From a virus: 38,879 nucleotides of DNA. Where the stretch lies: positions 1 through 38,879 of IMG/VR virus record IMGVR_UViG_3300013004_004504; one strand, 5' to 3'. Below, one piece after another: positions 2-36,293 of this stretch. Both the position numbers and the translations under genes were made by a program. A model generated the notes under the pieces. The model did no database searches and was not told where the DNA came from. It saw only the letters and a list, made by a program, of their open reading frames with translations. Positions within the stretch are counted from its first letter, which is position 1. Every line of letters begins with the position of its first letter.

Positions 2-934
2 GACGGCTTGCCTTCTGCATCGGAGGGGAAGGCACTTGGCAAGGAAGCGAGCGAAGCTGTTGCGAAGCTTCTGGCCGAATTGGTGCTGCTAGAAAGCCGG
101 ATCAGGGACTACCCCTTCCTCACTGCTGTAACGCCAGTCGTTGAGAAGCTGCGCGAGTTGGAGAACAAGCCCTATGGCTGGTACTTCACCGACCTCTCAA
201 AGCATGAAGATGCATTGCTGGATGCCAAGGAGCAGGTGATAGATCCGGTCCGTCGCTTCATGTCAGGCGCGCAGATCAAGATCTATGATGAGGCGCGGGA
301 CTACCTCTCCCTCCACGCTGAAAACATCTCCTACGTTGGCGGTAATGAGGCGGGGGCTATCCAGACAGCTCTGGGAGACCCCCAGTTCTTCAAGGGCAAC
401 GGAATTCAGCAGGTGAAGTCGCATCTGGATGCGCTTCGTCTGCGGATTGATGGCTTCGTAGCGAACGAACGCAAGAATGCCCTTGCAGAGATTGAGCAGC
501 GCGTTGGCCAGATCGAACTTGTGGCTTCACAAGAGGCTATTCCCGAGTTGCCGCAAGAGATCCGTGACATCTGTGACGGGGCGCTGGAAACTGTTCGAAC
601 TGCAACGCTCGTGGCCGTCATTCGCGAACGGCAAAGCTTCTTTGCCTCAAACACCTTCCCGGACCTGCTGAGCAGAGTTCAGAACCTCTCGCTGCGACCA
701 ATCGCCGAGCCGATTACCACTGAAGGTGAGGGGGGAGCAGACGCAACTGGGCAGGGCGCACCAGCGCCGGTGGCACCTGCAACTCCAAAGATTGAGAACG
801 TCGCGATCTCAAACCTGAGGGTTGGCTTTACGAGCCCCTGGCTGGCCAATGAGGGTGACGTGGACGCCTACCTTGAAACATACCGTGAAAAGCTGCTCTG
901 CGAGATCCGCAGTGGCAAAAGGATTACCCTCTGA
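2..934 (+). CDS. brxC: BrxC, C-terminal part (BREX P-loop ATPase), cut by window start
   Basis: An open frame runs from the window edge (first full codon at base 2) to a TGA at 932-934, giving about 310 residues. The true start lies upstream. The segment is mostly helical and charged and contains no Walker motifs, as expected for the end of BrxC, a protein of roughly 1200 residues whose ATPase domain is N-terminal. A low-complexity Gly/Ala/Pro patch around residues 245-265 separates a helical part from a short conserved tail. Identity rests mainly on position: in type 1 BREX the order is brxA-brxB-brxC-pglX-pglZ-brxL, and this gene precedes a clear pglX with a TGATG stop/start overlap. BrxC is a large NTPase needed for defence and methylation; its exact role is unsettled. 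brxA and brxB, if present, are outside the window. Confidence 0.78.
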   Translation, partial: DGLPSASEGKALGKEASEAVAKLLAELVLLESRIRDYPFLTAVTPVVEKLRELENKPYGWYFTDLSKHEDALLDAKEQVIDPVRRFMSGAQIKIYDEARDYLSLHAENISYVGGNEAGAIQTALGDPQFFKGNGIQQVKSHLDALRLRIDGFVANERKNALAEIEQRVGQIELVASQEAIPELPQEIRDICDGALETVRTATLVAVIRERQSFFASNTFPDLLSRVQNLSLRPIAEPITTEGEGGADATGQGAPAPVAPATPKIENVAISNLRVGFTSPWLANEGDVDAYLETYREKLLCEIRSGKRITL

Positions 935-3900
935 TGGATACCTCGAAGCTCAAGCCCTTTGCCCAAGACGCACGCAGAATTCTGAAAGCGCAGGTGTCAG
1001 CGCGGCTGGATCAGGTGTTGGCGGAGCAAAGCGCGGCCCGGCGCGAGCAGCCCAAGGCTGTTTCTGAGCTAGAAACGGAAATAGCCAAGAGCGCTCGGGA
1101 GCAGGTGATCGAGAAGGTCGCATACACCTGGTTCAATCGCTTCACCGCGCTAAGGTTCATGGATGCCAACGACTACACGCGGATCAAGGTGGTTTCTCCG
1201 GCCGAAGGACAAACACGCCCTGAGACACTCGCTGAAGCTGCTGCAGGAAACATTGATGAGGACGCTCCTGCAGATGTGAGAAACAAGGTTGCGGCCCTGC
1301 TGGATGGTCGCACACCATCACGTGATCCCCAGGGAGAGGCCTACCGTCTGCTGCTGGTCGCGGCCTGTAACCAATGGCATGCAACCATGCCCTTCATGTT
1401 CGAGAAAATCGCGGACTACACCGAACTGTTGATGCCGGAGGATCTGCTGTCGGCTGATAGCATCCTTGCGAAAGCTCGGGCCGTGATGACGGAAGAGGCC
1501 TGCCAGGACGTCGAGGTCATCGGCTGGCTCTACCAGTTCTACATCTCGGAAAAGAAGGACGAGGTTTTCGCCGGGCTAAAGAAGAACAAGAAGATCACAG
1601 CGGAAAACATTCCGGCGGCAACTCAGCTTTTTACCCCGCACTGGATCGTGCGTTATCTGGTGGAGAATTCGCTGGGGCGGCTGTGGCTGCTGAACCGCCC
1701 GAACTCAAAGCTGCCGTCCATGATGGACTATTACATAGCGCCGGAAGTGCCAGAAACCGATTTCCTGCGCATCTCCCGGCCAGAGGACATCCGCATCTGC
1801 GATCCGGCCTGCGGGTCAGGCCATATGCTGACCTATGCCTTTGATCTGCTATACGCGATCTATGAGGAAGAGGGATATGAAGCGACCGAAATCCCCGGAC
1901 TGATCCTGTCCAACAATCTGCATGGGATCGAGATCGATGACCGTGCGGGTGCGTTGGCTGCCTTTGCGCTTGCGATGAAGGTTGCGACTAAGCTCGGACG
2001 ACGCAGATTCCTTCGGCAGACTGTGCAGCCGAACATCTGCATAATGCAGGATGTATGTTTCTCCGCCTCCGAGATGCACGACGTTGCAGCCTTGGTGGGA
2101 CGCGATCTGTTCACCGCCGATTTTCGCGAGACCATGGGGCAGTTCGAGCAGGCCAAGAACTTCGGTTCGCTGATCGTGCCCAAGTTGCATAAGCCTGCCG
2201 AAGTGGCCCGTGTTGTACGCTTGATGGATTTCAGTGGCGACCTTCTGCGGCGCGAACTGCAGGAGCGAGTTCTGAAGGTGCTAGAGATGGCAGCGGCGCT
2301 CTCGCCGATTTACCATGTAGTAGTAGCTAACCCGCCGTATGCGGGAAGCAAAAACCTGAACTCATCGGTCTCCGTTTTTGCTAAGAAGCATTACCCAAAT
2401 AGTAAGACCGACTTATACACAATGTTTATGGAGCGCGGGCTTTCATTGATTATTGATTATGGCCTTATGGCTATGATTAATATGCAAACCTGGATGTTTT
2501 TATCAACATTTGAAAAGCTTCGTTTTGACTTGTTGAATAAATCAACAGTTGTTTCAATGGCTCATCTTGGGGAGCGAGCTTTTGACACAATTGGCGGAGC
2601 AGTTGTATCGACAACCGCTTTCATCCTAAAGAAGTCGGAAGATGTTGATCTTGAGGGGGTATTCGTCCGGCTTGTTTCTGGACAGAACGAAAAGCAGAAG
2701 TCCCATAGCCTTATGGCGGCGGTTAAATGTCCCGCGGATCCTAATCGATATAGTTCTACCACTCGAAAGTTGAAAGCTATACCCGGCCTGCCTTTGGCAT
2801 ATTGGCTGAGTGAAGAATTTTTGAATTTAATTTCAGCAAATAATAAAATGGGCGATGTTCTCGACTCTAAGCAAGGATTGGCAACGGCAAATAATGAAAG
2901 ATTTTTGCGGAGTTGGCACGAAGTCAATTTCAGAGGAATTGGAATTGGTTTGCATAGTTCTGCGGACGCCAAGATCACCGGCTTGCGCTGGTTTCCAGTA
3001 AATAAAGGTGGAGATTTCAGGAGATGGTATGGGAATCAAGATCTTGTAGTAAACTGGCAGAATGATGGCCAAGAAATTAGGGAATATGTAAATAAGCAAT
3101 ACCCATACCTCAATGGCAATATTGATTATGTTATCAAAGATCGAGGTAAATTTTTTGTGGAGAGCATAAGCTGGTCAGATGTAGCCAGTAAACGGAATGT
3201 TTTCCGATTTTATCCGCATGGATTTTTGTACGAAGCCAAGGGTCACTCAGCGTTCTATGGCGACCGCTCGCAGCGCGACGTTGCCTTGGCTTTCCTCAAT
3301 ACAAAAATCACTAACGAGATCGTGGCCGCCATTAGCCCCTCGGTTAGTTTCCACATTGGCTACTTTGATCGCTTGCCTTGGCCCAGTTTGGTCCCATGCG
3401 ATAAGGTCACTGCACAAACTACGCGATGTATCTCTCTCTCACAGCGAGACTGGGACGCCTACGAAACCTCCTGGAATTTTGCGACACTGCCGCTACTCTC
3501 GCCCGATTATCATGACCAGACGTTACAAGGGTCTTATGCCCGTCTCAGCATGCATTGGCGTGAGATAATCGATGAAATGCAACGGCTGGAAGAGCTGAAC
3601 AACGGCATATTCATTGAAGCCTACAACCTGCAGGGCGAGCTAACTCCTGATGTGCCGCTTGAGGAAATTTCCCTCACTTGCAACCCAGCCTATCGCTATG
3701 GCGGTAAATCAACCCCCGAAGAGTTAGAGGAGCGGTTACTAGCCGACACTATCGCCGAATTCCTTCACTATGCTGTGGGCTGCATGTTCGGACGCTATAG
3801 CCTTGATGCGCCGGGCCTGATCCTTGCCAATCAGGGAGAGGGGCTGGCCGAATACCTTGCTCGCGTCCCAGAGCCCTCATTCGAACCGGATGCCGACAAT

Positions 3901-4476
3901 GTCATCCCGATGCTGGAGGGCGACTGGTTTGCCGACGACATCGTGGAGCGTTTCCGCAAGTTCCTGCGTGTGACGTTTGGCGAGGCGAAGTTTCAGGAAA
4001 ATATGGCCTTCATTGAAAGCGCCTTGGGCAAGGACGTCCGCAAGTGGTTCACGCGCGATTTTTACGACTACCATGTCCGTCGCTATAAGAAGCGCCCCAT
4101 CTACTGGATGTTCTCCAGCCCCAAGGGTAGCTTCCAGGCGCTGATCTATATGCACCGTTACCAACCGGACACGGTCAGCGTGGTGCTGAACGATTATTTG
4201 CGTGAGTATCGCAATAAGCTAGAGGCGCATCGCAAGAGCCTAGAAGCGCTCAGCTCGAGCAGCGATGCCTTGCCTGCGCAGAAGGCAAAGGCCGAAAAGG
4301 AGATTGGCGAAGTTGCCAAGGTAATCGCCGAGCTCGATGCCTATGAGCGGGACGTGCTGTTCCCGCTCGCTACCCAGAAGGTCGAAATCGATCTGGATGA
4401 TGGCGTGAAGGCCAACTACCCGAAGTTTGGCGATGCCTTAAAGCCCATTAAAGGCCTCTCAGATGCGGATGACTGA
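934..4476 (+). CDS. pglX: PglX, BREX-1 adenine-specific DNA methyltransferase
   Basis: The 1180-residue protein has the usual length for type 1 PglX. The SAM-binding motif DPACGSG is at residues 290-296 and the catalytic NPPY motif at 466-469, the order of N6-adenine methyltransferases with a large C-terminal recognition region. By family knowledge, PglX methylates one strand of a short asymmetric site on host DNA, marking it as self and directing BREX against unmodified phage DNA. The ATG overlaps the brxC stop (TGATG), and pglZ starts two bases after its stop, so the genes are translationally linked. The stretch from roughly 2340 to 3240 (residues about 470-770) is much richer in A and T than either side, and lies just after NPPY, where target recognition is expected. 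The reading frame is intact, so the enzyme is probably functional. Confidence 0.95.
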   Translation: MDTSKLKPFAQDARRILKAQVSARLDQVLAEQSAARREQPKAVSELETEIAKSAREQVIEKVAYTWFNRFTALRFMDANDYTRIKVVSPAEGQTRPETLAEAAAGNIDEDAPADVRNKVAALLDGRTPSRDPQGEAYRLLLVAACNQWHATMPFMFEKIADYTELLMPEDLLSADSILAKARAVMTEEACQDVEVIGWLYQFYISEKKDEVFAGLKKNKKITAENIPAATQLFTPHWIVRYLVENSLGRLWLLNRPNSKLPSMMDYYIAPEVPETDFLRISRPEDIRICDPACGSGHMLTYAFDLLYAIYEEEGYEATEIPGLILSNNLHGIEIDDRAGALAAFALAMKVATKLGRRRFLRQTVQPNICIMQDVCFSASEMHDVAALVGRDLFTADFRETMGQFEQAKNFGSLIVPKLHKPAEVARVVRLMDFSGDLLRRELQERVLKVLEMAAALSPIYHVVVANPPYAGSKNLNSSVSVFAKKHYPNSKTDLYTMFMERGLSLIIDYGLMAMINMQTWMFLSTFEKLRFDLLNKSTVVSMAHLGERAFDTIGGAVVSTTAFILKKSEDVDLEGVFVRLVSGQNEKQKSHSLMAAVKCPADPNRYSSTTRKLKAIPGLPLAYWLSEEFLNLISANNKMGDVLDSKQGLATANNERFLRSWHEVNFRGIGIGLHSSADAKITGLRWFPVNKGGDFRRWYGNQDLVVNWQNDGQEIREYVNKQYPYLNGNIDYVIKDRGKFFVESISWSDVASKRNVFRFYPHGFLYEAKGHSAFYGDRSQRDVALAFLNTKITNEIVAAISPSVSFHIGYFDRLPWPSLVPCDKVTAQTTRCISLSQRDWDAYETSWNFATLPLLSPDYHDQTLQGSYARLSMHWREIIDEMQRLEELNNGIFIEAYNLQGELTPDVPLEEISLTCNPAYRYGGKSTPEELEERLLADTIAEFLHYAVGCMFGRYSLDAPGLILANQGEGLAEYLARVPEPSFEPDADNVIPMLEGDWFADDIVERFRKFLRVTFGEAKFQENMAFIESALGKDVRKWFTRDFYDYHVRRYKKRPIYWMFSSPKGSFQALIYMHRYQPDTVSVVLNDYLREYRNKLEAHRKSLEALSSSSDALPAQKAKAEKEIGEVAKVIAELDAYERDVLFPLATQKVEIDLDDGVKANYPKFGDALKPIKGLSDADD
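2340..3240 (+). other. AT-rich inserted or exchanged segment inside pglX (target-recognition region)
   Basis: Lines of sequence in this interval fall to about 33-48% G+C by eye, with runs such as ttgaatttaatttcagcaaa, while the flanking parts of the same gene are near 55% or more. The boundaries are approximate. The segment starts directly after the NPPY motif and ends before the conserved C-terminal half, which fits the part that reads the DNA target. The frame is uninterrupted. Inference: the specificity domain was replaced by recombination from a lower-GC donor. Confidence 0.7.
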
Positions 4477-4478
4477 CG

Positions 4479-6986
4479 ATGAATGATCGCATCTCAAAGG
4501 GCCTGACCGCCGCATTCGAAAGACACCGCGTCGTGTTCTGGACGGACTCGGCGCGCGAGCTCCGCGGTACTTTTGATAGCCTGGAGCTCCCAGGGATCGA
4601 AAAGCTTGTGCTCGAGAACAACGAATTCGGCGTGAAGCACAGGATCCTGCGGGGGCAGCCAGAGCAGCGCTTTCTTATATACAGAGAAGGAGCCGAGCCC
4701 GCGCATCTCGAAAACTGGCTGCTTGATATCCAGCTCGCCAACGGCGCATTCAAGGCCGACCAGGCGGCTCTGTGGCTGACCGAACTTGGTCTCGGCCTAG
4801 ATATGGAGGGCGCAGTTCGAGGGCACGAAGAATTTTTCCGATCCGCCCGCCGTGTAGAGCAGTTGAAATCGATGGCGCGAGGCGACGATCGGCTGGAAGT
4901 CATCAAGCTCAAGATGCTGTTGGTCTGCGCCAAAGCCGGTGCCGGTTCGGGCTTTGAGGAAATCATCGAACAGCTCCTGTCTGAACACGCAGAGAATGAC
5001 GATGAGACGATCCGACTGATAGAGCGGGTCAAGCTTGATGAGCTGCTTTGGCAACTTATCGGACGACATTTTGGCTATAATTCCGCCAGCCCCAGTGTGA
5101 GCGATTTCGCCATCACCCTTTTCAAGTCAGCCCATGCAGCTGGGCTGGGTGGCACGCCTCAACTTTCATCCGAAGCCTTGGTCTTCTTCAGGCGCTGGAA
5201 GAACAACCGCCACAACTCTATCGTGTTCGAGAAGCTGTCGGCCGCGTATGCGCAAGTCCTTCCAGTCCGGGACGATCTGGCCAGTCGAGACTTCCGCGAC
5301 CTGATGGAGCTCGATACGTTTGAGGATGTCGATCGAGCCATCATCGTTGCTCTGGTTCGAGGCGTGGCGTCCAAGACGCTATCTCACGGCGAAGTCGCGG
5401 TGTGGATCAGACAGCGCCGTCAGAGCCATTGGTTTGAGCGTTACCGGGACCTTTACGAGGCGGTTGGCTTCGCTGCAGAGTTCCAATTCGCGCTGTCCCA
5501 GGTGAACCTAGGTATGACCAGCCTTGAAGAGGGCATCAAACGCTACGCAAGCACATGGTTCCGCGTGGATCAGCTCTATCGCAAGTTCATTCATCGCATG
5601 CAGCGATCTGGGCAGGCGAGCCTGATGAGTGAGCTCTTCGAGCAGGTGGAGAACCATTACGTGAACAGCTACCTGCTCAGGCTCAATGACGCTTGGCAGG
5701 TTCATATAGATGGCGCGTCAAAGTGGGATGTGCCCGGGGTAGTCAGGCAGCGAGACTTCTACCAGACGCACGTTGGAGAGTTCCGGCGAAAGGGGCAGAA
5801 GATCTGCGTCATTATTTCAGACGCAATGCGATACGAAGTGGCCGACGAGCTTCTCGCAAGAGTTCGCGAGCTAGATAAATACGACGCCGAGCTCCAGCCT
5901 ATGCTCGGGTCGTTGCCGACCTACACGCAACTGGGCATGGCCTCACTCCTGCCGAACAAGGATCTGCAGATTGCAGATAACGAGACGAGTGCCGTGATAG
6001 TTGACGGACAGAGTTCGCTCGGGCTTGAGAACCGTAAGAAGATCTTGGCCAAGGGGCGGGAAGGGGACCGGACAACGGCGCTACCTGCCGATGAGCTTAT
6101 GTCCATGCCCAAAGACGATTGTCGGGCGCTGTTCCGTGATCATGACGTCATCTACGTCTACCACAATCTGATCGACGCAATTGGTGACAAGCCCGCGACT
6201 GAAGAGCGGGTATTCGAGGCTGCCGAGGACACGCTTGAGGCGCTCGTCCAACTGGTGAAGAAGCTGACGGCGGCAAATGCAAGCAGCCTGCTGATCACCT
6301 CGGACCACGGGTTTATCTACCAGCACCGCCCGATTGAAGAGAGCGACTTCTCGGGATCTGAGGTGGCCGGTGAGACCATTCTGTTCCGTAATCGTAGGTT
6401 TGTTCTGGGGCACGGACTCAAAGCCCAGCAGGGCCTGCGACATTACACTGCAGAAGCCGCGGGCCAGCAGGGAAATGTTGAAATCCTGATACCGAAGTCG
6501 ATAAACCGCCTTCGCCTGAAGGGTTCCGGCAGCCGGTTTGTGCACGGTGGCGCGACGCTCCAAGAAGCCATTGTGCCGGTTTTGAGGATCAACAAGAGCC
6601 GGCAAAGCGACACTTCTCATGTGGAAGTCGAGATCATTGCCAGCACGACGCAGGTCATTACCTCCGGCCAGATCTCGGTCCGTTTCTACCAGCAAGATGC
6701 AGTCACGGAGAAAAGCCGGTCCCGGCATCTACGGGCAGGGATCTACTCACAATCCGGCGAGCTGATCTCGGATAGCCACGATCTGGTGTTCGACTTCAGG
6801 TCGGAGAACCCGCGGGAGAGGGAACATCAGGTTCGTTTTCTGATGTCTCGTAAGGCCGACGAGTATAACGGGCAGGAGGTCATCCTGAAGCTCGAAGAGC
6901 AACACGGGGAAACCAGCCATTACCGAGAATATCGAAGCGCTCGCTATGTTCTGCGACGCAGCTTCACCAATGACTTTGACTTTTGA
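4479..6986 (+). CDS. pglZ: PglZ, BREX-1 alkaline-phosphatase-superfamily protein (type A)
   Basis: The 835-residue protein matches the length and N-terminal style of type A PglZ. The alkaline-phosphatase-like core is seen as IISDAMR (Asp448, predicted metal ligand) and ITSDHGFIY (Asp609, His610), with a helical N-terminal region of about 400 residues before it. PglZ is a core BREX component required for defence. It is a predicted metal-dependent phosphohydrolase or nuclease that works with PglX; its natural substrate is not established. It begins two bases after the pglX stop. The following brxL start at 6998 lies 11 bases beyond its TGA. Composition is even, with no sign of frameshift or truncation. 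Confidence 0.94.
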   Translation: MNDRISKGLTAAFERHRVVFWTDSARELRGTFDSLELPGIEKLVLENNEFGVKHRILRGQPEQRFLIYREGAEPAHLENWLLDIQLANGAFKADQAALWLTELGLGLDMEGAVRGHEEFFRSARRVEQLKSMARGDDRLEVIKLKMLLVCAKAGAGSGFEEIIEQLLSEHAENDDETIRLIERVKLDELLWQLIGRHFGYNSASPSVSDFAITLFKSAHAAGLGGTPQLSSEALVFFRRWKNNRHNSIVFEKLSAAYAQVLPVRDDLASRDFRDLMELDTFEDVDRAIIVALVRGVASKTLSHGEVAVWIRQRRQSHWFERYRDLYEAVGFAAEFQFALSQVNLGMTSLEEGIKRYASTWFRVDQLYRKFIHRMQRSGQASLMSELFEQVENHYVNSYLLRLNDAWQVHIDGASKWDVPGVVRQRDFYQTHVGEFRRKGQKICVIISDAMRYEVADELLARVRELDKYDAELQPMLGSLPTYTQLGMASLLPNKDLQIADNETSAVIVDGQSSLGLENRKKILAKGREGDRTTALPADELMSMPKDDCRALFRDHDVIYVYHNLIDAIGDKPATEERVFEAAEDTLEALVQLVKKLTAANASSLLITSDHGFIYQHRPIEESDFSGSEVAGETILFRNRRFVLGHGLKAQQGLRHYTAEAAGQQGNVEILIPKSINRLRLKGSGSRFVHGGATLQEAIVPVLRINKSRQSDTSHVEVEIIASTTQVITSGQISVRFYQQDAVTEKSRSRHLRAGIYSQSGELISDSHDLVFDFRSENPREREHQVRFLMSRKADEYNGQEVILKLEEQHGETSHYREYRSARYVLRRSFTNDFDF

Positions 6987-6997
6987 GGGGCCGTGGG

Positions 6998-9079
6998 ATG
7001 ACCGCACTGGACGACAAAATCAATGAACGCTTCCCAGGCCTTGTCGTGCGCAAGGATTTGGTCAAAGCGGTCAAGGGGAACGCCATCGTCCCCACCTATG
7101 TGCTTGAGTATCTGTTGGGGCAGTATTGCGCCACCAACGATGAAACGTCGATCCAGTCAGGGATCGAAACGGTACGCGAGATCCTGCGCAAGCATTACGT
7201 CCATCGCAATGAGGCTGGGCTGATCAAGTCCAACATCCGCGAGAAGGGACGCTGGAAGATCATTGATCGGATCAGCGTGGCCCTGAACGAGAAAAGCGAC
7301 ACCTACGAGGCGAGCTTTGCGAACCTCGGCATCTCGAAGGTTCTGATCGACTCCGGAACCGTCAAGGCGCACCCGAAGCTTCTGGTTGGAGGCGTGTGGT
7401 GCATTGCCGACATCGAATACGACTACACAGAGGACAAGAGCGTCACTCCCTGGATCCTGGGCACCATGAAGCCGATCCAGCTTTCCCACTTCGATTATGA
7501 GGCATATCTTGAGGCCCGAAAGGGTTTCTCGACAGACGAGTGGATTGATCTCCTTTTCCAGACAGTGGGCTTCGACCCGGAGATGTTTGGAAGGCGATCA
7601 AAGCTCATCCAGCTGATGCGCCTGATCCCGTTTGTGGAGCGCAATTACAACCTCATCGAGCTTGGACCTAAGGGAACCGGCAAATCGCACATCTTCTCGG
7701 AGTTCTCTCCGCACGGCATCCTCATCTCCGGTGGCGAAGTGACCGTGCCCAAACTGTTCGTGAGCAACAGCTCCGGCAAGCTCGGTCTTGTCGGTTATTG
7801 GGACGTGGTCGCGCTCGACGAATTTGCCGGCAAGCAAAAGAAGGTCGACAAGGCGCTGGTCGACATCCTTAAAAACTACATGGCTAACAAGACCTTCTCC
7901 CGTGGCGTCGAGCCATTGGGGGCAGAGGCCTCGATGGTCTTTGTCGGCAACACGAAACACACCGTCCCTTACATGCTCAAAAACACAGACCTGTTTGACG
8001 AGCTTCCTGACAAGTACTACGATTCCGCCTTCATCGACCGTCTTCATACCTACATCCCTGGCTGGGAGGTCGGCGTCATCCGCGGTGAGATGTTCTCAAG
8101 TGGATACGGCTTCGTTGTCGACTACCTTGCCGAAATCCTTCGCCATCTGAGAAATGACGATTATTCCGACCGATACCGGCCGCACTTTGATCTTTCTGCC
8201 GACATCTCAACGCGCGATCGAGACGGCGTTCATAAGACCTTCTCCGGCCTCATGAAGCTGCTTTACCCCTCCGGGGACGCTACGGCCGATGAAATGGAGG
8301 AGATCCTCAAGCTCGCGCTGGAAGGGCGCAAGCGGGTCAAAGATCAGCTGATGCGGATCGACACCACCTATCCTGAGGTGGACTTTTCATTCTCTCGCAA
8401 GAGCGGTGAGAAGGTTAGCGTTGCAACGCTCGAAGAGAGCGAATTTCCGGCATTTTATTATCGGCGAGCGGCAGAGCCTGCGGCCGCAACGCATGAGCCA
8501 GAAGCTACCAAGCCCCAAGCACCGTCATCCAATCAGAGTGTTGGGGAGGGGGGGCAGCCCGCTGTTACCGAACCAGTGGGGCCGCAAACTGGACATTTCA
8601 GCTACCATGAGAACCAGCGCGGCGTGACCTTCGATGCGCTGTTTGGTCCCTATCTCGTGGGCGCTCAGAAGATCACGATTACTGATCCCTACATTCGAGC
8701 GTTTCATCAAGTCCGCAATGTTATGGAGCTCATCGAAACGATCGCGAAAACCAAGTATCCGGCGGACGAGGTTGAGGTGCATCTGATCACATGTCTGGAC
8801 GGAATTCGACCGGAGAAGCAGGCTGAAAACCTAGCCGCGATTGCCGCATCTTGTGAGGGCGTCGGGATCAAATTCACGTGGGAGTTTGATGAAACAAACA
8901 CCATTCATGCCCGCCATATCGTTACGGATACTGGCTGGAAAATTGCCTTAGATCGAGGCCTCGACATCTTCCAGCAATATGAGTTGAACGACGCCTTTAG
9001 CTTTGCCAACCGGCTCCAGCAGTTCCGGTCTGTCAAAGCCTTTGAGGTGATCTACCTAAAGACCCCTAAGGTTGATTGA
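6998..9079 (+). CDS. brxL: BrxL-type AAA+ ATPase with a C-terminal MIT_C-like domain instead of Lon protease
   Basis: The ATG at 6998 is preceded by a GAGGGG ribosome site at 6985-6990; a TTG at 6983 in frame is less likely. The 693-residue protein has the BrxL N-terminal region (residues about 1-200) and an AAA+ core with Walker A GPKGTGKS at 223-230 and Walker B around Asp274-Glu275. A Pro/Ala/Gln-rich linker follows (about 495-540). Known BrxL proteins form DNA-binding rings and end in a Lon-like protease domain. Here the last about 150 residues instead carry DPYIRAFHQ (from Asp563), HLITCLDGI, and GWKIALDRGLDIFQQYE. This is the pattern I know from the PLD-like C-terminal domain of MITD1 (PF16565), and no Ser-Lys protease region is recognisable. 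The gene ends just before the ATG of the GIY-YIG gene, so it is part of the same operon. Confidence 0.9.
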   Translation: MTALDDKINERFPGLVVRKDLVKAVKGNAIVPTYVLEYLLGQYCATNDETSIQSGIETVREILRKHYVHRNEAGLIKSNIREKGRWKIIDRISVALNEKSDTYEASFANLGISKVLIDSGTVKAHPKLLVGGVWCIADIEYDYTEDKSVTPWILGTMKPIQLSHFDYEAYLEARKGFSTDEWIDLLFQTVGFDPEMFGRRSKLIQLMRLIPFVERNYNLIELGPKGTGKSHIFSEFSPHGILISGGEVTVPKLFVSNSSGKLGLVGYWDVVALDEFAGKQKKVDKALVDILKNYMANKTFSRGVEPLGAEASMVFVGNTKHTVPYMLKNTDLFDELPDKYYDSAFIDRLHTYIPGWEVGVIRGEMFSSGYGFVVDYLAEILRHLRNDDYSDRYRPHFDLSADISTRDRDGVHKTFSGLMKLLYPSGDATADEMEEILKLALEGRKRVKDQLMRIDTTYPEVDFSFSRKSGEKVSVATLEESEFPAFYYRRAAEPAAATHEPEATKPQAPSSNQSVGEGGQPAVTEPVGPQTGHFSYHENQRGVTFDALFGPYLVGAQKITITDPYIRAFHQVRNVMELIETIAKTKYPADEVEVHLITCLDGIRPEKQAENLAAIAASCEGVGIKFTWEFDETNTIHARHIVTDTGWKIALDRGLDIFQQYELNDAFSFANRLQQFRSVKAFEVIYLKTPKVD

Positions 9080-9080
9080 T

Positions 9081-10028
9081 ATGCGCCCGCGCTCAATCAA
9101 CATCTTTCTGCTCGACGGGGATCCGGATGGCATACGTGTAGCCCAGATTTCGATGTCCACAATCCAGGCGATCGCTTTCCGCAAACTGCAGATGAAGCAG
9201 GTGCGTGGGACATTTCCTGAATTGGCCCGACCGGGCGTTTACCTCCTGCTTGGCTTCGATGAAGCGCAGCCGGATCGTCTCATGGCTTATATCGGTGAAT
9301 CCGAAGGCGTGGCCAATCGACTGCAGTATCATGCCGGTAATGATAAGGGCGTAGATAGCAAACCGTTCTGGACTGAGACGATTGTGTTGGTCAGCAAGGA
9401 TGAGAACCTTACCAAATCCCACGCCCGATATGTTGAAGCCAGACTGATCGCAGATGCAGGGCTCAACCCACGTTGGTCGCTGCTGAACTCCCAGAAGGCA
9501 AGCGAGGTCGGCAAACTGCCGCTACCGGATCGGGCCGCGATGGAAGAGTTCATCGACCAGACGAAGACATTGGTTGGTGCACTTGGCTGCGATTTGTTCA
9601 AAGTCGTCTCAGGTGACCTCACAAATGGTGGCAGGTTGGAAATCAAAGGTGCGATCGACGTTCCCAATGTTGTTTTTGCATATCGAGGCCAAGGTTTCGC
9701 CGCTCAAATGTTGATCACTGCCAGCAGCGAGTTCGTGGTGAAGAGGGGATCTGTCGCCCGGATCAAAACGACTAATACCATCCCCAAGGGGACTGTAGGC
9801 TTGCGCTCCGATTTGCTCGCCAAGGGTATTCTGGTGGAACAGAATGACGGCCTTCTGTTCACCTCCGACTACATATTTTCGTCGGTTTCCGCAGCCGCAG
9901 CCACGGTAACAGGGGCGGCGGCAAATGGCAGAATTCTCTGGCGATTACCGGATGGTAGAACCTATGCGGAGTGGGAGGAGGCAGAAAACAGCGTCCCGCC
10001 ATCTGATGGCGCAGACTACGACGCATAG
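9081..10028 (+). CDS. GIY-YIG nuclease with C-terminal DUF4357-like domain (BREX-associated)
   Basis: The start is taken as ATG 9081, one base after the brxL stop; TTG 9072 is the alternative. The 315-residue protein has a GIY-YIG domain at about residues 45-140: GVY (52-54), YIG (70-72), an Arg in ANRLQYHAG, and a candidate metal-binding Glu119 in YVEARLI. The C-terminal about 120 residues, with LRSDLL..GIL and a final GR.YAEWEEAE, fit DUF4357, a small domain often attached to restriction or GIY-YIG proteins. GIY-YIG enzymes cut DNA with one metal ion. Its place at the end of the BREX operon suggests an effector or accessory restriction nuclease, but that role is inferred. Its last 13 bases overlap the 3' end of the opposing sulfotransferase gene. 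Confidence 0.85.
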   Translation: MRPRSINIFLLDGDPDGIRVAQISMSTIQAIAFRKLQMKQVRGTFPELARPGVYLLLGFDEAQPDRLMAYIGESEGVANRLQYHAGNDKGVDSKPFWTETIVLVSKDENLTKSHARYVEARLIADAGLNPRWSLLNSQKASEVGKLPLPDRAAMEEFIDQTKTLVGALGCDLFKVVSGDLTNGGRLEIKGAIDVPNVVFAYRGQGFAAQMLITASSEFVVKRGSVARIKTTNTIPKGTVGLRSDLLAKGILVEQNDGLLFTSDYIFSSVSAAAATVTGAAANGRILWRLPDGRTYAEWEEAENSVPPSDGADYDA

Positions 10029-32355: not shown

Positions 32356-32806
32356 TTTCTTCCGGCGGCTCGGCCGAGATCCTGCTCCTTGCACTGGGCG
32401 TCATCCCGAATTCTGCGGCGTAACGCATCATGTCCGCCGCCGCCTTGTTGGCAGTTCCCACCAGCGGGTTCTGGATCGCGTTGCCGTTCGATGTCTTGAT
32501 CATGAGGCCGCCGGTCAGCTGGTCCTTCTCGGCCATCTTGGCGATGGCCCGTTCGGCCTGGACCCAGCGTCCATAGGCCATGGCGTAGGCAGCAAGTGCC
32601 GCCCGGTCGATCTCGGACAAGATGCCGAGGTTGAAGAGCTCGGTTGCCACCCGGTTCCATTCCTCGACCGCATCGGAGGTGAGGTGGGCTGGCGGCGCTG
32701 GTATTGCAGCCTTGGTCTTGGCCTCTTTGCGGTTGACCTTTCGCTTACCCGGATTGGAGGTCACAAGCTTGAGCTGCGTAGGCTTCGGCTTTCTGCCGGT
32801 AATCAT
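32324..32806 (-). CDS. terminase small subunit, P27 family
   Basis: The 160-residue protein opens with a Lys-rich MITGRKPKPTQLKLVTSNPG, then KRKVNRKEAKT, and continues with IPAPPAHLTSDAVEEWNRVA and DRAALAAYAMAYGRWVQAER. These are the signature of P27-type small terminases. It recognises phage DNA and recruits TerL. It overlaps TerL at its end and the methyltransferase stop at its start (ATGA), so the three are co-translated. Confidence 0.92.
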   Translation of the reverse strand: MITGRKPKPTQLKLVTSNPGKRKVNRKEAKTKAAIPAPPAHLTSDAVEEWNRVATELFNLGILSEIDRAALAAYAMAYGRWVQAERAIAKMAEKDQLTGGLMIKTSNGNAIQNPLVGTANKAAADMMRYAAEFGMTPSARSRISAEPPEESGDPADRFFA

Positions 32807-34056
32807 GCGGCCTCAGCTATTCTCCCGCCTGCAATTTCGTCGAAAGTCCGGCCGTCCCCTTCAAGGGTCGCAGCCTGGCCGGTGAAATCCTGCCAGCGCT
32901 TCACGGCCACATCGATGTAAGCGGGATTAAGCTCGATGGCGTGGATGGCGCGGCCGGTCATCTCACCGGCGATGATAGTGGTGCCCGAGCCAGAGAAAGG
33001 CTCGTAGACAGCCTGGCCCGGGCTGGAATTGTTCTCGATCGGGCGCTTCATGCACTCGACCGGCTTTTGGGTGCCGTGGCCGGTTTCGTTCTTCTTGGGC
33101 TTGGCGATGTGCCAAACGGTGGTCTGCTTGCGGTCACCGGCCCAGTGACCTTTGGCCCCCTTCTTCACGGCATACCAGCAGGGCTCATGTTCCCAGTGGT
33201 AATCGCCTCGTGAAAGGACAAGCTGGCCCTTGTCCCAGATGATCTGGGAACGCAGGTGGAAATCGCAGGCAGCGAGACTGTCGCCGACAACACCGGCAAA
33301 CAGACCTGCATGCCAAACGTAGGCAACATCGCCTGGGAACAGTGCCCACGCGTCGCGCCAGTCGGCCTTGTCATCGTTCAACACCTTGCCCTTGGCTGAG
33401 CCCGAGGCGGCAACGCCAGCTTTCTCGCGCCAGCCTGGATCATACTCTACGCCGTAAGGAGGATCGGTGACCATCAGGTGGGGTGAAACGCCGTTCAGCG
33501 CCTTGGCGACGGCTTCGGCATCGGTGCTGTCGCCGCAGACCAGCCGGTGCTTGCCGAGCAGCCAGACATCGCCGGATTTGGTGATGGGCTCGATCGGCGC
33601 TTCCGGAATTGCGTCGGGGTCGGTCAGGCCATCGGTCTTCTCGGTCAGCAGCTTTGACAACTCGTCGGCCGAGAACCCGGTCAGCATCAGGTCGAAATCG
33701 AAACCCTGCAGATCGCCCAGTTCGACGGCCAGCAGTTCAAGGTCCCAGCCAGCATTCAACGCCAGCTTATTGTCGGCGATGACGTAGGCCTTCTTCTGGG
33801 CCTCGCTCCAGCCCTTGGCGACCATGGTCGGTATCTGCGTCAGCCCCAGCTTGCGCGCAGCAAGCAGACGTCCATGGCCAGCAATCAGCCCGCCATCTTC
33901 ATCAACGAGGATCGGATTGGTCCAGCCCCATTCACGGATTGAGGCAGCGATCTGCGCAACCTGTTCATCCGAGTGCGTGCGGGAGTTGCGCGCATAGGGC
34001 GTGATCTTCTCTATCGGCCAGAACTCACTGCTCTGGGCCGGCCAGTTCTGATCCAT
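32803..34056 (-). CDS. ParB-like domain fused to DNA methyltransferase (N6/N4 type)
   Basis: The 417-residue protein has an N-terminal ParB/Srx-like domain at about 10-75 (KITPYARNSRTHSDEQVAQI, then GGLIAGHGRLLAARKLG). The methyltransferase follows, with the catalytic DPPY at 198-201 before the SAM motif FSGSG at 354-358, the beta-class order. A Cys/Trp-rich middle (YHWEHEPCWYAVKKGAKGHW) is typical. Such phage enzymes methylate adenine or cytosine in short sites, which could evade restriction or BREX, or tune packaging. AAGGA precedes the start, and the stop overlaps the TerS ATG. The target sequence cannot be read from sequence. Confidence 0.9.
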   Translation of the reverse strand: MDQNWPAQSSEFWPIEKITPYARNSRTHSDEQVAQIAASIREWGWTNPILVDEDGGLIAGHGRLLAARKLGLTQIPTMVAKGWSEAQKKAYVIADNKLALNAGWDLELLAVELGDLQGFDFDLMLTGFSADELSKLLTEKTDGLTDPDAIPEAPIEPITKSGDVWLLGKHRLVCGDSTDAEAVAKALNGVSPHLMVTDPPYGVEYDPGWREKAGVAASGSAKGKVLNDDKADWRDAWALFPGDVAYVWHAGLFAGVVGDSLAACDFHLRSQIIWDKGQLVLSRGDYHWEHEPCWYAVKKGAKGHWAGDRKQTTVWHIAKPKKNETGHGTQKPVECMKRPIENNSSPGQAVYEPFSGSGTTIIAGEMTGRAIHAIELNPAYIDVAVKRWQDFTGQAATLEGDGRTFDEIAGGRIAEAA

Positions 34057-34964: not shown

Positions 34965-35153
34965 ATGATGGCGGATATTCAGAAGGAATTGGCGCTTCGG
35001 TTGGCCTGGTACATTGATCGCTATGGCGAGATACCTGAGCGCGATATGATCAAACTTTGGGGCGCGGCGACACTAGGACGCAAAGATGACGAGGCTGAGC
35101 GGATCACTGCCTTGGCTGACGATGTCCTCGAGTATTTCCGATCGATGGATTAA
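34965..35153 (+). CDS. small hypothetical protein, 62 aa, on the opposite strand
   Basis: Two adjacent ATGs (34965, 34968) follow GGAGAGG. The protein is acidic and helical (DIQKELALRLAWYIDRYGEI, then DDEAERITALADDVLEYFRS), with no family recognised. Its TAA overlaps the TAA of the convergent HNH gene within the four bases TTAA. It runs against the phage late genes, which hints at a regulator or a prophage-expressed accessory gene. Confidence 0.6.
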   Translation: MMADIQKELALRLAWYIDRYGEIPERDMIKLWGAATLGRKDDEAERITALADDVLEYFRSMD

Positions 35154-35425
35154 CCGGCTCTCCCGATCGGCCACCCGTCAGGGTCCACTTCAACCGTCCT
35201 GCGATGACCGAACTGCTCGGCCGTGCGTGCCTGGTGGCAGTCAGCGCAGAGGCAGCGGATGTTGCTGTCATCGTCCGAGCCACCCAAGGTGAGCGGCACG
35301 ATATGGTCAGGCACGGTGGCTGCGCGAACGATGCCCTTGGCAGCGCAGTTCTTACAGACTGGTTCAGCCTGAAGGCGACGCAAACGCTGGATGACCGCGC
35401 GGCGCCCACGCATTCTTGTAGTCAT
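35150..35425 (-). CDS. HNH endonuclease
   Basis: The protein has CKNC and CLCADCH zinc-binding pairs around the core DHIVPLTLGGSDDDSN, the HNH layout. With ATG 35425 it is 91 residues; an upstream in-frame start at 35578 would run into the DUF3800 gene and gives unlikely sequence. HNH enzymes next to terminase genes are often needed for cos-type cutting in HK97-like phages. Here the gene is several genes upstream of TerS, so that role is inferred. No good ribosome site is visible. Confidence 0.85.
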   Translation of the reverse strand: MTTRMRGRRAVIQRLRRLQAEPVCKNCAAKGIVRAATVPDHIVPLTLGGSDDDSNIRCLCADCHQARTAEQFGHRRTVEVDPDGWPIGRAG

Positions 35426-35480
35426 TTGGCGTTCGGGTAAAAAGCGTTGGACATCAAAGCGGCCGAGCCTTGGAGGGATT

Positions 35481-36293
35481 ATGATTTCGGATGAGTTCCA
35501 GCAGGCAGTGAAGGCGGGCGTGTATGGCTTACTTATCGACGATACCGGTTCGCCGGGAGTACAGGCAAATAATCCCAACCTGCCAAAAGAAACGAAATCG
35601 TTGGTTGGTGTGCTTGTTCCACCACACGCGATGCCGGTTATTGCGGATCAATTACCAGGTGTTATTGATGAAATCCGAAGCATAACAGGCGCCAACGAAA
35701 TGCATTTCGTTGACATATATGGTGCACGTAAAAATTGGAAAGGCGTCGATCCAAAAGTCAGGCTGGGAATTTTCGGGTTCATGTCTTGGATTTTCGATAC
35801 ATACGGTCTTAAACTGATTGTTCAGAGTTTCACGGCTGCGCAGCACCAAGATGTTATTAGTAGGCTTGGCATCGATAATGCCGGTCCATTCGACCTTAAG
35901 AAGATCGAAGATGCAGCCCTATTGTTTCTGCTTATTCAAGCAAAATGGCATCTCAAAAGTCTGAGTCATGCGCCTGGGGCTAAGGCTGGTGTTTTTATAG
36001 ATGCCGGGAACGGATGGAAGAGATCCGATAGCAAGCATCAGGTTAATATTTTTAGTGATGTATTTATGAACGGCGAATTTGGTTTTTATGATTCAGCAAA
36101 AATGCCGCCCATACAAATTGCGGACTTTGCCGCATTCTTTCACAATCGAGTTAACCTCATTATAAATAAGGTTTCACCAGAACTATTTGACCGCCAATTG
36201 GTCGAAATTCTTCAACCTCTGCAAACTGGGTATTTAAATATACCAACCCTGTCCTGGGACGTAATTTTCCCGGAATTTCCGTCATATCAATAG
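35481..36293 (+). CDS. DUF3800 family protein, putative RNase H-like nuclease
   Basis: GGAGGG precedes ATG 35481 and gives 270 residues. The DUF3800 pattern is visible: LLIDDTGSPG (Asp20/21), EMHF (Glu73, His75), VFIDAGNGW (Asp174), and PPIQIADFAAFFHNR (Asp215). Together they form a likely metal site of an RNase H-like fold. The substrate is unknown; members occur in phages, plasmids and defence regions. The gene is more AT-rich than its neighbours and is transcribed opposite to the late operon. This suggests a cargo gene acquired separately (a moron). Start choice is secure because of the ribosome site. Confidence 0.85.
   Translation: MISDEFQQAVKAGVYGLLIDDTGSPGVQANNPNLPKETKSLVGVLVPPHAMPVIADQLPGVIDEIRSITGANEMHFVDIYGARKNWKGVDPKVRLGIFGFMSWIFDTYGLKLIVQSFTAAQHQDVISRLGIDNAGPFDLKKIEDAALLFLLIQAKWHLKSLSHAPGAKAGVFIDAGNGWKRSDSKHQVNIFSDVFMNGEFGFYDSAKMPPIQIADFAAFFHNRVNLIINKVSPELFDRQLVEILQPLQTGYLNIPTLSWDVIFPEFPSYQ

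What the first reader, a model, noticed from the sequence alone, without database searches (positions are those of the whole stretch)
8600..9079. BrxL whose protease domain is replaced by a MITD1-like (MIT_C) domain
Seen: after the AAA+ core and a Pro/Ala-rich linker, the last 150 residues carry DPYIRAFHQ, HLITCLDGI and GWKIALDRGLDIFQQYE. Known from the family: these match the PLD-like C-terminal domain of MITD1, a eukaryotic ESCRT-linked protein, while standard BrxL ends in a Lon-like protease. Inference: this BREX variant swaps a proteolytic output for a binding or membrane-contacting module, which could change how the defence acts.
Basis: partly seen in the sequence, partly recalled or inferred. 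Interest (0 to 1): 0.72.

Follow-up and report, generated by a model that had tools for sequence, protein, structure and literature searches.

The report
BREX BrxL with MITD1-like C-terminal domain
This bacterial anti-phage protein (BrxL) really does end in the same phospholipase-D-like domain found in the human protein MITD1, but this form is common and was published in January 2026 as a BrxL with a predicted nuclease tail; the less expected point is how close one group of bacterial BrxL tails is to the human domain.

Summary
Observation confirmed. ORF 6983-9079 (+), probably starting at the ATG at 6998 (693 aa), is a type I BREX BrxL. Its last ~150 residues match Pfam MIT_C (E = 3e-40), match human MITD1 by sequence (E = 3e-15) and fold (Z 21.9, 1.8 A), and show no Lon similarity.

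No proteolytic output was swapped away: Lon-type BrxL tails are reported not to carry a protease site and showed no Ser-Lys dyad here. The variant is not new: Rakesh & Krishnan (NAR 2026, PMC12839542) report 1030 of 2913 type-1 BrxLs with LonP replaced by an 'HKD-endoDNase' carrying an HRD motif. The window has that motif (H642-x-R644-x4-D649). My sample gave 7 of 17 BrxLs with MIT_C; the other 10 had Lon_C.

A predicted nuclease is the leading mechanism but unproven. The same H, R and RGLD residues are kept in MITD1, which binds membranes, and in bacterial dynamin and Sel1-repeat fusions, so their conservation does not separate cleavage from phosphate or lipid binding.

Additional result: human MITD1's domain groups with one BrxL lineage (45-48% identity, 100/99 support), closer than that lineage is to most other BrxL tails. 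Direction of transfer unresolved.

The parts
2..934 (+). brxC, C-terminal part (cut by the window start)
   Evidence: PF25792 2.4e-19; PADLOC BrxC 1.2e-65
934..4476 (+). pglX/brxX, BREX-1 adenine methyltransferase
   Evidence: NF033452, 1423 bits
4479..6986 (+). pglZ, BREX-1 type A
   Evidence: TIGR02687, 900 bits
6983..9079 (+). brxL (TTG at 6983; more likely start ATG at 6998)
7028..7420 (+). BrxL_N domain (residues 16-146)
   Evidence: PF20442 6.4e-49
7454..8386 (+). BrxL AAA+ ATPase (158-468), Walker A GPKGTGKS, Walker B region with E280
   Evidence: PF13337 6.5e-126; alignment
8462..8575 (+). disordered linker (residues 494-531), Pro/Ala-rich
   Evidence: pLDDT below 50
8621..9058 (+). 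MIT_C / PLD-like domain (547-692)
   Evidence: PF16565 3e-40; same range; fold MITD1 Z 21.9
8684..8698 (+). DPYIR (568-572); D, Y and R invariant in 91 of 91
8906..8929 (+). HARHIVTD = HxRx4D, degenerate HKD motif (H642, R644, D649)
   Evidence: H 91/91, R 91/91, D 85/91 (N 5, G 1)
8954..8965 (+). RGLD (658-661), in the place of GSxN
   Evidence: R and G 91/91, D 90/91
9072..10028 (+). PDC-S14-like gene with C-terminal DUF4357; N-terminus reads like GIY-YIG (GVYLL...AYIGES)
   Evidence: PADLOC PDC-S14 1.6e-87, DUF4357 1.9e-17; GIY-YIG by eye only

Best explanation
A type I BREX BrxL of the MIT_C subfamily: N-terminal DNA-binding region, AAA+ ring ATPase, disordered linker, and a single PLD-superfamily domain with an HxRx4D site in place of the Lon-like fold. 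Proposed mechanism (inferred): BrxL rings assemble on DNA as in Acinetobacter BrxL, and the tethered PLD-like domains, which by analogy with single-HKD nucleases (Nuc, BfiI; own knowledge) would need to pair, form a composite phosphodiesterase site that cuts or clamps non-self DNA. Shown: domain identity, fold, conserved site, operon context, wide distribution. Inferred: DNA as substrate, cleavage, pairing.
For: MIT_C E = 3e-40. AF2 model of the domain pLDDT 89.4, pTM 0.85. VIA: MITD1 Z 21.9; next the PLD-family restriction nucleases SauUSI 7clg Z 11.0 and NgoAVII 4rct Z 9.8, then Nuc 1byr 9.2 and BfiI 2c1l 8.4. H642 and R644 in 91/91, D649 in 85/91. Published: 1030 of 2913 type-1 BrxLs carry an HKD-endoDNase with an HRD motif (PMC12839542). 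Lon-type BrxL assembles on dsDNA, its C-terminal domain joining two rings (PMC10164562). Type I operon neighbours brxC, pglX, pglZ.
Against: No activity data found. R replaces the catalytic K, RGLD replaces GSxN, and D649 is N or G in 6 of 91. The nearest fold by far is MITD1, a membrane-binding domain, which keeps the same H and R. PglZ is already reported as the BREX-1 nuclease, so another is not required.
Confidence: 0.5

Rival explanations
1. Non-catalytic phosphate, lipid or membrane docking domain, as in MITD1: BrxL is held at the membrane, for instance at the site of phage DNA entry.
For: 26 of 34 BrxL-conserved residues are identical in human MITD1 against 19% elsewhere, p = 6.5e-9. 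MITD1's domain is described as membrane-binding and needed for abscission (PMC6015221). A Thiodictyon plasmid protein joins a dynamin GTPase domain to MIT_C with HDRYVVCD...GRGLD.
Against: No lipid-binding data for any bacterial member were found. Other bacterial carriers (Sel1 repeats; IF2_N) are not obviously membrane proteins. BrxL works on DNA (PMC10164562).
Confidence: 0.27
2. Mainly structural: the domain pairs rings tail to tail or docks other BREX proteins, the role reported for the Lon-like tail, with no chemistry.
For: The Lon-like tail it replaces has no catalytic dyad and dimerises rings; Type-4 BrxL has no C-terminal extension.
Against: A purely structural role would not be expected to keep an invariant H-x-R and RGLD set as far as human MITD1.
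Confidence: 0.2
3. A divergent active Lon protease domain.
For: Only the family name 'Lon protease-like'.
Against: No Lon_C hit; PLD fold; the Lon-type BrxLs themselves show no Ser-Lys dyad.
Confidence: 0.01

Closest known systems
BrxL with C-terminal 'HKD-endoDNase' (Rakesh & Krishnan 2026, PMC12839542, citing Li et al. 2025, whose text is not held)
   Same: Type I BREX BrxL, LonP substituted, HRD motif, about a third of type-1 BrxLs
   Different: The paper's main text does not name MITD1; that its domain is PF16565 is my inference from motif, position and frequency
Human MITD1 C-terminal domain (4a5z, 2ymb)
   Same: Fold (Z 21.9), H-x-R, RGLD, DPYIR..Q
   Different: MITD1 has an N-terminal MIT domain and N in place of D649; it is an ESCRT-III partner
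Acinetobacter BrxL (8emc)
   Same: N-terminal and AAA+ regions, aligned over 8-471 (E = 2.9e-138)
   Different: Lon/RadA-like tail instead of PLD-like
PLD-family restriction nucleases SauUSI, NgoAVII, BfiI, and the nuclease Nuc
   Same: PLD fold
   Different: Only 8-12% identity; by own knowledge they carry HxK, this carries HxR

Membership tests
BrxL | BrxL_N plus BrxL AAA+ ATPase domains | tested here: met
   PF20442 and PF13337; TIGR02688 626 bits against 329
BrxL | gene directly after pglZ in a type I BREX operon | tested here: met
   brxC-pglX-pglZ-brxL; brxA and brxB lie outside the window
BrxL, Lon-type (TIGR02653) | full-length match including the Lon-like tail | tested here: not met
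   575 bits against a cut-off of 628, matching only 8-472
MIT_C (PF16565) | score above the gathering cut-off over the full domain | tested here: met
   137.9 against 25 bits, profile 1-141 of 142
MITD1 | N-terminal MIT domain | tested here: not met
   no MIT domain hit in the protein
PLD superfamily | PLD fold | tested here: met
PLD superfamily, catalytic | HxKx4D with GSxN | tested here: not met
   HxRx4D with RGLD: H and D present, K replaced by R, GSxN absent
PLD superfamily, catalytic | two motifs facing each other (dimer or tandem) | not testable with these tools
   one motif per chain; no complex prediction available
Lon protease (S16) | Lon_C domain with Ser-Lys dyad | tested here: not met
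   no Lon_C hit; PLD fold
HKD-type DNA endonuclease | DNA cleavage | not testable with these tools
   needs an assay

The most novel reading that the evidence does not exclude
The PLD-like domain of the human ESCRT-III partner MITD1 and the tail of one BrxL lineage share a recent common origin (gene transfer between BREX and eukaryotes, either way) and one phosphate site (HxRx4[DN] with RGLD), so the BREX effector and the cytokinesis factor share biochemistry: either MITD1 is an unrecognised phosphodiesterase or BrxL docks on membranes.
Probability: 0.35. Interest if true: 0.65.

Novelty: already known. Interest (0 to 1): 0.35.

Why it matters
How BrxL stops phage is open, and two alternative tails (a Lon-like fold without protease residues, or a PLD-like domain with a conserved site) offer a natural comparison. 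The PLD-like form has a specific pair of residues (H642, R644) to mutate, which would test directly whether BrxL is an enzyme. The closeness of one BrxL lineage to human MITD1 links a phage-defence domain to a cytokinesis factor whose site has the same residues, so work on one bears on the other.

Tried and rejected
Full-length AF2 model of BrxL: pLDDT 65.5, AAA+ region unusable; used only for the linker. Profile comparison of the tail with the rest of BrxL: no similarity, so no internal duplication. Phage collection tblastn for the tail: no match. Megablast of the phage part: no match. No tRNA in the window and no convincing repeat near the BREX/phage junction, so no attachment site was found. 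One pattern search was uninformative. Li et al. 2025 and Goldfarb et al. 2015 are not held, so they are cited only through other papers. Core tree: does not resolve whether MIT_C entered BrxL once or twice; very long branch for L174. The first core tree showed one MIT clade, but its MIT rows were mostly gathered by closeness to the window, so it does not speak for all MIT_C BrxLs. No Lon structure appeared among the listed fold matches, which is an absence, not a test.

Full report
Observation. ORF 6983-9079 on the + strand encodes 698 aa from TTG; the family consensus suggests the ATG at 6998, giving 693 aa. It has BrxL_N, BrxL_ATPase and, from residue 547 to 692, MIT_C at E = 3e-40; there is no Lon_C hit and no MIT domain. 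PADLOC's BrxL model PDLC02508 fits the whole length, tail included, so this form was already in a defence library in 2023. phmmer finds human MITD1 at E = 3.2e-15.

Fold. The tail modelled with 51 homologues has pLDDT 89.4 and pTM 0.85. Foldseek and VIA put MITD1 first (Z 21.9, rmsd 1.8, 152 residues, 30% identity), then the PLD-family restriction nucleases SauUSI (Z 11.0) and NgoAVII R (9.8), E. coli phosphatidylserine synthase (9.7), Nuc (9.2) and BfiI (8.4). No Lon structure was among the matches shown.

Site. The classical HxKx4D motif appears as H642-A-R644-HIVT-D649. Across 91 sequences H and R are invariant; D is kept in 85, N in 5, G in 1. R658, G659 and W652 are invariant. The first 80 relatives came from a scan with the window protein and span Pseudomonadota, Cyanobacteriota, Bacteroidota, Thermodesulfobacteriota, Campylobacterota, Synergistota and others.

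Survey. In 398 Pseudomonadota genomes PF13337 is over its cut-off in 17 and PF16565 in 7; all 7 are BrxL-bearing genomes and the two domains lie close together in one frame. The other 10 BrxLs all give a Lon_C match, one of them just under the family cut-off. PF16565 is over its cut-off in 26 of 394 Bacteroidota genomes and 15 of 386 genomes of the cyanobacterial sample; nearly all strong matches fetched are in BrxL frames. This fits the published count of 1030 of 2913 (PMC12839542). That paper calls the domain an HKD-endoDNase with an HRD motif; its identity with PF16565 is my inference from motif, position and frequency.

The 'proteolytic' contrast. The Acinetobacter BrxL tail has a Lon/RadA-like fold without the Lon active-site motif and joins two rings (PMC10164562). 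The ten Lon-type tails aligned here show neither a conserved Ser nor Lys in the Lon positions (alignment; Lon motif positions from own knowledge). The swap therefore replaces a fold without protease residues, not a working protease.

Mechanism. A nuclease is the published reading and I put it first at about 0.5. Against over-confidence: of 34 positions conserved among BrxL tails, 26 are identical in human MITD1, against 19% of the remaining positions (p = 6.5e-9); these include H642, R644, DPY-R and RGLD, while D649 is N. MITD1 is described as membrane-binding (PMC6015221). The domain also occurs outside BrxL: fused to a dynamin GTPase (L115), to IF2_N (L117) and to Sel1 repeats (L175), each with the H-x-R and RGLD residues. 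Conservation of H and R therefore does not by itself show DNA cleavage.

MITD1-like BrxLs. Tails of a BrxL lineage in Bacteroidota and in plasmids of Thioflavicoccus and Hymenobacter match human MITD1 far better than the window does: L118 at E = 8.5e-39, 45-48% identity. L118/L172 lies on a 1.57-Mb contig with BrxL_N, ATPase and MIT_C, next to PglZ and an Eco57I-type methyltransferase. In two domain trees MITD1 and these tails form one group (100/99; 200 of 200 bootstrap trees). A tree that keeps the bacterial ones with L174 to the exclusion of MITD1 is rejected only weakly (p-AU 0.048, group named after seeing the tree). Only one eukaryotic sequence was available and the tree is unrooted, so the direction of transfer is open. 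I found no paper that states this link, within a library that lacks most subscription journals.

Context. The window is an IMG/VR virus record. BREX genes run on the + strand to 10028, then phage genes (tail fibre, tape measure, capsid, portal, terminase) on the - strand fill the rest. Two other IMG/VR contigs, L083 and L084, show the same meeting of a BREX operon and phage tail genes, with other restriction-like genes nearby in L083's record. Whether the phage carries BREX or sits beside a host defence island is not decided.

Noticed in passing
L118/L172 (7508-9571), L173, L167 (3384-5483), L168 (1402-3480): A BrxL lineage whose MIT_C tail is 45-48% identical to human MITD1 (E = 8.5e-39 for L118) and groups with it at 100/99, closer than to most other BrxL tails. 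Possible gene transfer between BREX and eukaryotes.
   Followed up: partly
L115 3637-6480: Thiodictyon plasmid protein with an N-terminal dynamin GTPase domain and a C-terminal MIT_C domain keeping HDR...GRGLD.
   Followed up: partly
L175 4098-7307; L117 6443-7492: MIT_C outside BrxL: joined to Sel1 repeats (Bacteroidota) and to IF2_N (Paenarthrobacter plasmid).
   Followed up: partly
window 9072-10028: PDC-S14-like gene with DUF4357 directly after brxL, overlapping it by 8 bases; N-terminus reads like GIY-YIG. Not found after brxL in the 80 closest loci, but DNA similarity extends into it in L092/L112.
   Followed up: partly
window 10016-38877 (-): Phage structural genes convergent with the BREX operon; L083 and L084 show a similar junction with unrelated tail genes. 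BREX as phage cargo or as a host island next to a prophage is undecided.
   Followed up: partly
window 32803-34056 (-): ParB_N plus N6_N4_Mtase protein next to the terminase, and an HNH nuclease at 35150-35578.
   Followed up: no
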